NCBI RefSeq assembly: GCF_005405065.1
Contig: NZ_BJDI01000002.1
Coordinates: 62,001-126,000, forward strand
Reading direction: 5' to 3'
From: Lactiplantibacillus nangangensis
Lineage (GTDB): Bacteria; Bacillota; Bacilli; Lactobacillales; Lactobacillaceae
DNA length: 64,000 bases
Position 1 is the stretch's first letter, and every line of letters starts with the position of its first letter. Made by a program: the position numbers and the translations under genes. The notes beneath the pieces are model-generated. The model did no database searches. It had not been told where the DNA came from and saw only the letters and a list, made by a program, of their open reading frames with translations. Positions 19,871 through 45,422 of this stretch are shown here, in pieces.

Positions 19871-20063
19871 TCCTCTAACACATCCTATTCTTAAATAGTT
19901 CTGCTCTAGCAGACTTACCAGACTACTATACCATAACTCTGTTCGCTTCTGCAGGGTGATGGAAATCTTTACAAAATTTTCAGACAATTCACACGGTCTT
20001 CATAAAATTTACCATAATCATTGATCAAAGTTAATGAAAGCCGAATGTAAAGTCAGTAAACTA

Positions 20064-20274
20064 AAAGTCGATGGTTGCCGCTTCCGGTTGTTGTTGAGTG
20101 CATGCGGGCGGGGACCGGGTCAAGCCTGAAAAACGTCTTGACCCTCGTTTGGAAGTTTCGCTAAATCCGCAAATCTTCCGAACGGTCCGTGGTGTAAGAC
20201 CGGAAAAGCGCCGGTCAAACGCCATCCACACACCCGATGCACTCAACAACAACCTACAGCTAGCCAACTACTTT
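20064..20274 (+). ncRNA. Candidate structured non-coding RNA (unknown family)
   Basis: The core 20086-20254 is closed by a perfect 18-bp stem (20086-20103 with 20237-20254). This continues inward as CGGG/CCCG (20105-20108, 20233-20236) and outward, after an internal loop, as GTTG/CAAC and AAAAGT/ACTTTT. Inside are three hairpins: 8 bp at 20117-20124/20137-20144, 10 bp at 20146-20155/20175-20184, and a two-part one at 20190-20194/20220-20224 plus 20198-20203/20211-20216. GGAC/GTCC (20112-20115, 20185-20188) closes the first two as a junction. Two stem pairs are G-U only on the + strand, favouring that orientation. The segment is far more GC-rich than its surroundings. It does not match 6S, SRP, RNase P or tmRNA signatures that I know. 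A multicopy palindromic element is the main alternative. Confidence 0.5.
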
Positions 20275-20307
20275 TAATAATTAATCAGTTTTTTTAGATT
20301 TAGTGGC

Positions 20308-20391
20308 GTCAGTCAGGATTGGTGTGCTGTGTCGGCTTTTAATTGAGGTAGAAGTCCGACCTTTCAACATAGTATACCGATTTTGACTGAC
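20308..20391. other. Second stem-loop element in the same intergenic region
   Basis: GTCAGTCA (20308-20315) pairs exactly with TGACTGAC (20384-20391), and inside lies a further hairpin with arms GTCGG and CCGAC. A weaker stem TCCAGT/ACTGGA follows within 20400-20445. No coding frame is convincing in 20275-20480. Confidence 0.35.
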
Positions 20392-20480
20392 AGCCCATAC
20401 GAGTCCAGTTTAGACATCAGCAACGCTAGTATTACTGGATTTTAGACGCTTCTGACACTTTAATCCTAAATCTTCCAAAC

Positions 20481-20517
20481 AAAAAATCGTTAAGCACCAA
20501 TTTGGCTTAACGATTTG
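20481..20517 (-). terminator. Terminator of the hit-yhaH unit
   Basis: An 11-bp perfect stem (AAATCGTTAAG and CTTAACGATTT) is followed on the - strand by a T run, immediately after the yhaH stop codon. Confidence 0.85.
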
Positions 20518-20520
20518 AGC

Positions 20521-20859
20521 TTATTCCTTTGGTGCTAGGTCATCTAAGGTCTTTTGTAAATGGTCGGCGTGTTTCTTCATAAGGGCTAAATGCGGTTCAA
20601 TCTTAAATTGAAATTTGTCCACTTCAGTCGAAATGTCATCGATCACTTCACCAGCGTGGGCGAGTTGGACGCCTAAATCACTGGAAGCGTCGGAGAAGTC
20701 TTCACGCGCGGATTGTAGATTGTCTGCCGCGTCGAGGACTTCTTGGACATAGTCTTTGACGTCAGTATAGACGTCTTTGGGCGTTTTACGATTGATCAAC
20801 ATGTATGCGGCTAGGCTTAACCCTAAACCAGCCATACTGCGACGGAAAAATTTGGCCAT
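20521..20859 (-). CDS. YtxH/YhaH-like protein
   Basis: A 112-residue protein with one N-terminal hydrophobic stretch (SMAGLGLSLAAYMLI) followed by a long charged helical region (DVKDYVQEVLDAADNLQSAR onward). This is the layout of the YtxH family, which includes the Bacillus general stress protein YhaH encoded near hit and ecsAB. The start at 20859 lies 6 bp after a perfect GGAGGTG; an upstream ATG at 20868 overlaps that site. Function in the cell is unclear. It is cotranscribed with hit, 12 bp upstream. Confidence 0.65.
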   Translation of the reverse strand: MAKFFRRSMAGLGLSLAAYMLINRKTPKDVYTDVKDYVQEVLDAADNLQSAREDFSDASSDLGVQLAHAGEVIDDISTEVDKFQFKIEPHLALMKKHADHLQKTLDDLAPKE

Positions 20860-20871
20860 AGTAGGCACCTC

Positions 20872-45269: not shown

Positions 45270-45395
45270 GTTGAGAAAAAAAGCAGAAGCACCCGCTTCT
45301 CGCCTTGGTAACGTCAAGTTATCGGGCAGATGAACGAATGAATTTATTCCCATTAACGGGAGTGAGCGGGCGTGTTATGCGCCCGCTCTTTTTGT
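45270..45395 (+). promoter_or_regulatory. Ribosomal leader (L20-type) of the infC operon, ending in a terminator
   Basis: The roughly 130-nt leader between promoter and infC is highly structured. It ends in a stem GAGCGGGCG/CGCCCGCTC (45364-45372, 45380-45388) followed by five T, an intrinsic terminator before the first gene. In Firmicutes L20 binds this leader and promotes premature termination (known for Bacillus). The exact L20 site here is inferred from position and layout. Confidence 0.7.
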
Positions 45396-45422
45396 GGATT
45401 TCTCGAAATTTTACGGAGGTGA

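What the first reader, a model, noticed from the sequence alone, without database searches (positions are those of the whole stretch)
20064..20274. Candidate novel structured RNA between prsA and yhaH
A GC-rich 169-bp core is closed by a perfect 18-bp stem and holds three hairpins plus a junction-closing helix, with pairing extending outward to about 211 nt. Two pairs in separate stems (T150-G179 and T193-G221) are G-U only for a + strand transcript and would be A-C mismatches on the other strand. That argues for RNA-level selection in one orientation. None of the 6S, SRP, RNase P, tmRNA or riboswitch signatures I know fit. The symmetric UAA/AAA internal loop in the third hairpin looks like a tertiary-contact module.
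Basis: partly seen in the sequence, partly recalled or inferred. Interest (0 to 1): 0.78.

Follow-up and report, generated by a model that had tools for sequence, protein, structure and literature searches.

The report
Mobile repeat with a folded core
What looked like a single new RNA gene is one of about a hundred copies of a short jumping DNA repeat in this Lactobacillus relative, whose intricate folded core recurs in other genera for a reason not yet known.

Summary
The fold is real: MFE -103.9 kcal/mol, z -10. It is not a single RNA gene. A covariance model finds 83 strong and about 24 weak copies in this genome, and matches in 16 of 21 genomes of the genus and 62 of 301 of the family, 10 of 40 genera. 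Rfam has no match. Pairing covaries in the genus (23 of 38 pairs) and in other genera (29 of 38; those copies were found with the model).

Many copies of the window's subfamily are bounded by CTAAAGGTTGAAAG inverted ends, some with 7-9 bp duplications; a congener has an IS4-family insertion sequence with the same ends. So it is a MITE-like mobile repeat, although the window copy's own ends are decayed. Copies lie past gene 3' ends, mostly in sense orientation; relatives have empty sites.

The G-U argument for + strand RNA fails among strong copies: A-C mismatches are at least as common. Why the fold is kept is open: RNA, DNA hairpin, or template-switch repair. My paper searches found no description of the family.

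The parts
20061..20471 (+). Whole mobile repeat, window copy, about 411 bp; limits tentative
   Evidence: Limits placed by eye against the consensus ends; downstream similarity to other copies reaches about 20467
20061..20074 (+). Candidate left inverted end, CTAAAAGTCGATGG, 4 mismatches to CTAAAGGTTGAAAG
   Evidence: Position; not found by the 3-mismatch scan; at 4 mismatches chance matches are common
20458..20471 (-). Candidate right inverted end (reverse complement ATTTAGGATTAAAG), 5 mismatches; no target duplication left
   Evidence: Position; the window copy is not among the 64
20080..20260 (+). Structured core with closing stem P1 and its foot (GCT-TCC-GG ... CC-TAC-AGC)
20110..20233 (+). 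Match of covariance model R1 (127.1 bits), the only strong match in the 64-kb window
20086..20254 (+). Closing stem P1: arms 20086-20103 and 20237-20254, 18 bp perfect
   Evidence: all 12 predicted P1 pairs have a change on both sides in at least one sequence
20112..20188 (+). Junction helix J (GGAC/GTCC): 20112-20115 with 20185-20188, encloses H1 and H2
20117..20144 (+). Hairpin H1: 20117-20126 with 20135-20144
20149..20181 (+). Hairpin H2: 20149-20161 with 20169-20181
20189..20225 (+).
20308..20391 (.). Right-half hairpin, arms 20308-20332 and 20367-20391; I read it as the closing stem of a second, inverted core with its inside mostly deleted (inference)
   Evidence: a second inverted core lies at the corresponding place in L029 and in many G001/G002 copies
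20481..20514 (-). Terminator-like hairpin and T-run of the neighbouring minus-strand gene (20521-20868); the tentative right end lies 9 nt past the T-run
   Evidence: Direct reading; ORF

Best explanation
The feature is one copy of a non-autonomous mobile repeat (MITE-like). In the window's subfamily (A) the element, where its ends are preserved, is bounded by 14-bp inverted ends CTAAAGGTTGAAAG and carries a structured core, often followed by a second, divergent core in inverted, tail-to-tail orientation. An IS4-family transposase that recognises the same ends most likely moved it in trans, making 7-9 bp target duplications past gene 3' ends. SHOWN: copy number, ends and duplications in part of the copies, an insertion sequence with identical ends in a congener, sites without the core in relatives, placement and orientation bias, conserved base pairing. 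INFERRED: that this transposase moved the copies, that the window copy once had such ends, and that copies no longer move in this genome, where no homologue of the transposase was found. UNDECIDED: whether the core's fold acts as RNA in readthrough or 3'-UTR transcripts, as a DNA hairpin, or is kept largely by template-switch repair of inverted repeats.
For: Forty scored copies, 39 of them besides the query at 81-87% identity; 83 strong matches of R1. Of 143 copies (83 own, 60 from five congeners) 64 have both ends within 4 mismatches; of these 7 have a perfect 8-bp duplication, 9 others a perfect 7-bp and 1 a perfect 9-bp one; mean identity of flanking 8-mers 3.95 against 2.82 (maximum 3.33 in 2000 shuffles). 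Control with the reversed pattern: 19 of 143 at 4 mismatches; at 3 mismatches 14 of 53 A copies have both ends, control 0. Autonomous partner L187: 457-aa transposase, NCBIfam IS4 NF049925 E 5.9e-138, same ends, 7-bp duplication, after a T-run. The same ends flank four more IS loci of 14 examined, in two further genera (L192, L200, L202; L193). 0 of 26 relative loci for 15 of 16 queried insertion sites hold the core. Upstream gene in sense for 70 of 82 own copies; tandem contexts 29 sense, 8 antisense; 43 of 55 and 12 to 2 in other genomes.
Against: Subfamily B (29 of 83 own copies) has no such ends: 0 of 29 with both at 3 mismatches, 1 of 29 at 4 as in the control. Paired units in other genera and some congeners have other end sequences, and no duplication was found in 16 examined. 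So the IS4 route explains only part of the family. The window copy's ends are weak (4 and 5 mismatches) and it keeps no duplication. Of the 64 end-bounded copies 47 lack a perfect 7-9 bp duplication, and part of the 64 is chance. Of 12 TIR sites fetched, 3 (L323, L330, L331) had no core match. The core is GC-rich (0.55-0.66 in the strong own matches), unlike the AT-rich MITEs of the review. The orientation preference is not explained by symmetric ends.
Confidence: 0.8

Rival explanations
1. The base pairing is kept mainly by mutation, not selection: hairpin arms are homogenised by template switching during replication, which copies a change from one arm to the other and mimics compensatory evolution.
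For: No preference for G-U over A-C among single-sided changes in strong copies (28 v 33 in A, 6 v 19 in B; 21 v 32 in other genera), as expected if mismatches are corrected at DNA level. P1 arms differ widely between species yet pair. Abstract and outline of PMC8794818 seen: template switching can create and maintain hairpins with compensatory changes. Loss of H1 and H2 at helix J in two G001 copies looks like hairpin-driven slippage (by eye).
Against: Unpaired positions are also conserved across genera (17 of 43 unpaired columns at 90% or more in A5), which arm homogenisation cannot explain.
Confidence: 0.3
2. The core is a functional RNA transcribed from the + strand of each copy (readthrough or 3'-UTR), for example a processing, stability or decoy element.
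For: Sense orientation bias downstream of genes; 17 of 70 sense copies begin within 20 nt of the stop codon, and at L145 the native terminator follows the element (by eye); unpaired stretches such as AAAA and AA/AA are A-rich on the + strand. In the 15 weak own copies G-U outnumbers A-C, 12 v 5.
Against: No wobble asymmetry on that strand in strong copies. Relatives lack the core at the queried genes. Some copies lie beyond a T-run. The window copy is antisense to both neighbours. No transcript data.
Confidence: 0.2
3. Single novel ncRNA gene between prsA and yhaH.
For: Strong fold and no Rfam match.
Against: About a hundred dispersed copies, inverted ends and duplications in many, sites without the core for other copies.
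Confidence: 0.02
4. Retroelement-like insertion: a group IIC-intron-like or REP/RAYT-like element that targets terminators through hairpins (recalled analogies).
For: Oriented insertion; in subfamily B a run of five T lies within 25 nt on the left in 12 of 29 and the mirror-image A-run on the right in 2 of 29.
Against: In subfamily A there is no such asymmetry, 10 v 11 of 54. No group II intron match in Rfam; inverted ends with 7-9 bp duplications in A; the core is far longer than REPs (14-40 nt in E. coli, PMC12306157 passage).
Confidence: 0.06

Closest known systems
Pneumococcal BOX, RUP and SPRITE repeats (PMC3049150; passages seen)
   Same: High-copy intergenic repeats, overrepresented between convergent genes; BOX and RUP have inverted ends similar to those of insertion sequences and strong secondary structure
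   Different: Reported in S. pneumoniae, less in S. mitis, rarely in other streptococci; here the core is found in ten of 40 genera sampled, with covariation. No sequence comparison was made
Prokaryotic MITEs in general, e.g. QMITE2 of C. burnetii (PMC10969869; passages seen)
   Same: Short, inverted ends, 7-9 bp direct repeats in QMITE2, foldable transcript, thought to derive from IS
   Different: Review calls MITEs typically AT-rich; this core is GC-rich, branched, and recurs across genera in different outer contexts
MRSC-65-2 motif (PMC11109978; passages seen)
   Same: Multi-copy motif with covariation read as a selfish element, possibly acting as DNA
   Different: Described as a single long stem; here three hairpins, a junction helix and a closing stem
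IS4-family insertion sequence L187 (NF049925)
   Same: Identical inverted ends (13-14 bp), duplication of similar size, insertion after a T-run
   Different: 1567 bp with a transposase gene; no structured core match in L187

Membership tests
MITE (non-autonomous IS derivative) | Short element, many copies, no transposase | tested here: met
   about 411 bp in the window; end-to-end spacing roughly 240-590 bp elsewhere
MITE (non-autonomous IS derivative) | Terminal inverted repeats | tested here: met
   For subfamily A and congeners: 64 of 143 at 4 mismatches (control 19); 14 of 53 A at 3 (control 0). Not met for subfamily B; weak in the window copy
MITE (non-autonomous IS derivative) | Target site duplications | tested here: met
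   17 of 64 with a perfect 7-9 bp duplication; mean above all 2000 shuffles. None left in the window copy
MITE (non-autonomous IS derivative) | Ends shared with an autonomous IS | tested here: met
   L187 and IS loci in two other genera; no homologue in the window's own genome at 1e-60
MITE (non-autonomous IS derivative) | Mobilisation by that transposase | not testable with these tools
   Needs an experiment
Known Rfam RNA family | Match at gathering score, or a convincing weak match | tested here: not met
   the two weak matches inside the core are minus-strand with E 6.2 and 7.8
Structured RNA on the + strand | Compensatory changes | tested here: met
   but DNA-level processes can give the same signal
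Structured RNA on the + strand | G-U preferred over A-C on the transcribed strand | tested here: not met
   Strong copies. The 15 weak own copies go the other way, 12 v 5
Structured RNA on the + strand | A discrete transcript | not testable with these tools
   No expression data
BOX/RUP/SPRITE | Sequence homology to the pneumococcal repeats | not tested
   Only analogy; no alignment made
REP/BIME | Short (14-40 nt) palindrome | tested here: not met
   Core with P1 is about 180 nt with three hairpins

The most novel reading that the evidence does not exclude
The folded core is a selfish nucleic-acid module in its own right, older than the IS4-type ends that now carry it in Lactiplantibacillus. 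It recurs in at least ten Lactobacillaceae genera, alone past terminators and stop codons, in tail-to-tail pairs, or inside IS4-ended MITEs, and its fold is under selection for a step, such as oriented insertion at gene 3' ends or hairpin processing, that no described element class uses.
Probability: 0.28. Interest if true: 0.8.

Novelty: new variant of a known kind. Interest (0 to 1): 0.6.

Why it matters
It adds foreign sequence after dozens of genes per genome. It is also a test case for a general problem: covariation, the usual proof of a functional RNA, is strong here although the strand test gives no support for RNA. Deciding here between RNA selection, DNA-hairpin function and template-switch repair would bear on how covariation is read elsewhere.

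Tried and rejected
Rfam at gathering and permissive thresholds: no family for the core. Phage and plasmid collections with the window sequence: no match at 1e-5. Viral contigs with a core pattern: none. One pattern match in an Oscillospiraceae MAG (L212) was not confirmed by the covariance model, so I treat it as chance.

Shared positions: 8 of 83 own copies have an upstream flank similar to that of one of 60 sampled copies of other genomes, all eight in G001/G002. Reading them showed several to be different subfamilies beside the same gene, so I do not claim shared descent.

Selections: A1 holds 42 of the 86 hits; 34 own copies were left out to balance species, 7 opposite-strand echoes and 3 others (L059, one each of L077 and L081) were dropped. 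A2 drops one more (41). A5 holds 28 of 38 model matches from other genera, the ten left out being mostly the lowest scoring; all were located with R1, so the test is outside the training set but not free of selection for the structure. A4 is fitted to R1 and was used only for mismatch counts. Of the 26 weak matches two are short opposite-strand echoes of strong copies, and one more has E 0.09.

Limits: neighbour genes are ORF-based. The convergent-distance counts (22 of 26 in A, 10 of 13 in B) are inflated for A where the right end was not found; I rest on tandem counts (A 18 to 5, B 11 to 3). Minus-strand relatives were first read in the wrong orientation and redone. One search covers 26 of the 29 loci (three short G015 matches left out) and 15 of 16 sites (none found for L122). 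One search failed on string length and was not repeated; P1 counts come. One search was a filing attempt with a format error.

Full report
WHAT IS THERE. MFE -103.9 kcal/mol against a shuffled mean of -61.3, z -10.0, 0 of 200 shuffles as low. The other strand is as stable (-103.6, z -8.1).

IT IS A REPEAT. A DNA search of the same genome scored 40 of 97 candidates; 39 copies besides the query are 81-87% identical. I aligned 42 cores from ten genomes of the genus, fixed a 38-pair structure and built covariance model R1 from 41 of them. In the own genome R1 gives 109 matches at E up to 1, with 150 of 916 candidates scored: 83 at 96.9 bits or more, 26 at 57.7 or less, two of the latter being short opposite-strand echoes. 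By DNA search alone it was 10 of 21. In the family 62 of 301 genomes match at E 0.001, in 10 of 40 genera, at most 11 candidates scored per genome. A sequence-pattern scan found it in named Companilactobacillus and Furfurilactobacillus records, confirmed by R1 in those tested.

THE FOLD IS CONSERVED. In 41 genus copies 93.8% of cells pair (shuffled 79.7; slid 30-49%), and 23 of 38 pairs have changes on both sides. Outside the training set I aligned 28 cores from other genera, plus the window copy, without structure and applied the same 38 pairs: 92.5% paired (shuffled 75.7; slid 29-45%), 29 of 38 pairs changed on both sides, 0 of 500 shuffles reaching any of the five measures. These copies had been located with R1, so some selection for structure remains. 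All 12 predicted P1 pairs, outside R1, have double changes.

THE STRAND TEST IS NEGATIVE FOR STRONG COPIES. Strong copies of other genomes (95): 127 v 146. Weak partner copies of other genomes (47): 44 v 116. Against this, the 15 weak own copies give 12 v 5. Single-sided changes from subfamily consensus: 28 v 33 (A, 53 copies) and 6 v 19 (B, 29; one copy fitted neither). In unpaired positions the same classes run 55 v 26 and 37 v 9, so a general bias towards the A-C class does not explain the result, though base composition differs. Other genera: 21 v 32; genus set 41 v 65; P1 8 v 19. Pairing itself is guarded: single-sided transversions 14 of 3656 paired bases against 109 of 2271 unpaired in A.

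IT MOVES. Copies of the window's subfamily share longer flanks ending in CTAAAGGTTGAAAG and its reverse complement. ACTAAAGGTTGAAAG occurs 22+24 times with up to 2 mismatches in the own genome, reversed control 6+8. Of 143 copies, 64 have both ends within 4 mismatches, reversed-pattern control 19; at 3 mismatches 14 of 53 A copies, control 0, and 0 of 29 B copies. Of the 64, 7 have perfect 8-bp, 9 perfect 7-bp and 1 perfect 9-bp duplications; mean identity of flanking 8-mers is 3.95 v 2.82 shuffled, maximum 3.33 of 2000. The window copy is not among the 64: its candidate ends have 4 and 5 mismatches and no duplication remains.

PARTNER. In G001 two such ends span 1567 bp around a 457-aa IS4-family transposase, with a 7-bp duplication after a T-run. 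Of 14 further transposase loci examined, 4 (two other genera) have the same ends, several have variants, the rest none that I could find. In a search of 121 genomes 8 had a homologue at 1e-60; the own genome gave no candidate. So its copies are probably stranded.

THE CORE IS NOT TIED TO THOSE ENDS. Subfamily B lacks them. In other species a second core often follows in inverted, tail-to-tail orientation. Of 12 fetched TIR sites 9 hold a core match and 3 do not. Some end-bounded copies with damaged cores keep duplications: L320 and L321 lack H1 and H2, L322 lacks H2 and H3, with 8-, 8- and 7-bp duplications read by eye. So the full core seems not to be needed for movement by these ends, though the losses may have come after insertion.

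WHERE IT SITS. For 83 strong own copies: upstream gene in sense for 70 of 82 with a call; convergent 39, tandem-sense 29, tandem-antisense 8, divergent 4, incomplete 3. In 60 copies of five other genomes: sense in 43 of 55 with a call, tandem 12 to 2. Convergent enrichment is expected of any tolerated insertion; the tandem bias is not. Of the 70 sense copies 17 begin within 20 nt of the stop codon. A run of five T lies within 25 nt of the left limit in 12 of 29 B copies (mirror on the right 2) but shows no asymmetry in A (10 v 11 of 54). For sixteen own sites, chosen by me mainly from B, 26 relative loci in G001 and G015 cover 15 sites, and 0 of 26 hold the core; several show an ordinary terminator at the place, by eye. 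The window copy is reversed: its tentative right end lies 9 nt past the T-run of the minus-strand gene 20521-20868.

WHAT IT WORKS LIKE. Most likely a MITE-like repeat moved in trans by an IS4-family transposase and retained past gene ends. Why a branched fold survives across genera is not settled. Template switching can maintain hairpins (PMC8794818, abstract and outline) and fits the strand symmetry, but not the conserved unpaired bases (17 of 43 columns at 90% or more in A5). RNA function fits the orientation bias, but not the wobble counts.

KNOWN OR NEW. Nearest in kind are the pneumococcal BOX/RUP/SPRITE repeats (PMC3049150, passages) and other MITEs (PMC10969869, passages). A 2024 survey describes a multi-copy covarying motif, MRSC-65-2, as a single long stem (PMC11109978, passages). 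PMC12306157 does not contain the word-start 'lactobacill'. PMC2267715 lists three stem-loop clusters in Lactobacillus johnsonii, which I did not examine. Seven paper searches listed no description of this family; the library lacks most subscription journals. I rate it a new variant of a known kind.

Noticed in passing
window 45275-45400 (+): Ribosomal protein L20 leader (RF00558), 87 bits, the only Rfam gathering-level match in the window
   Followed up: no
L187:629-2193: IS4-family insertion sequence in a congener with ends identical to those of the repeat and a 7-bp duplication after a T-run
   Followed up: yes
L320, L321 (G001): Two TIR-bounded copies at different sites share loss of H1 and H2 at the junction helix, between short GGACC repeats (by eye)
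   Followed up: partly
own genome, e.g. C3:69122-69430, C13:5966-6279, C14:55118-55433: A weak, diverged subfamily (22-58 bits), partly in close tail-to-tail pairs; wobble counts of 15 weak own copies (12 G-U v 5 A-C) go against those of the strong copies
   Followed up: no
L221, L248, L279, L270, L095, L080, L056: Paired cores bounded by inverted TGCCGCCTCCGG-like ends, seen by eye; no target duplication found by the script
   Followed up: partly
genomes G010, G015, G016, G018, G019: Five of 21 genus genomes have no match at E 0.01, so the family is patchy within the genus
   Followed up: no
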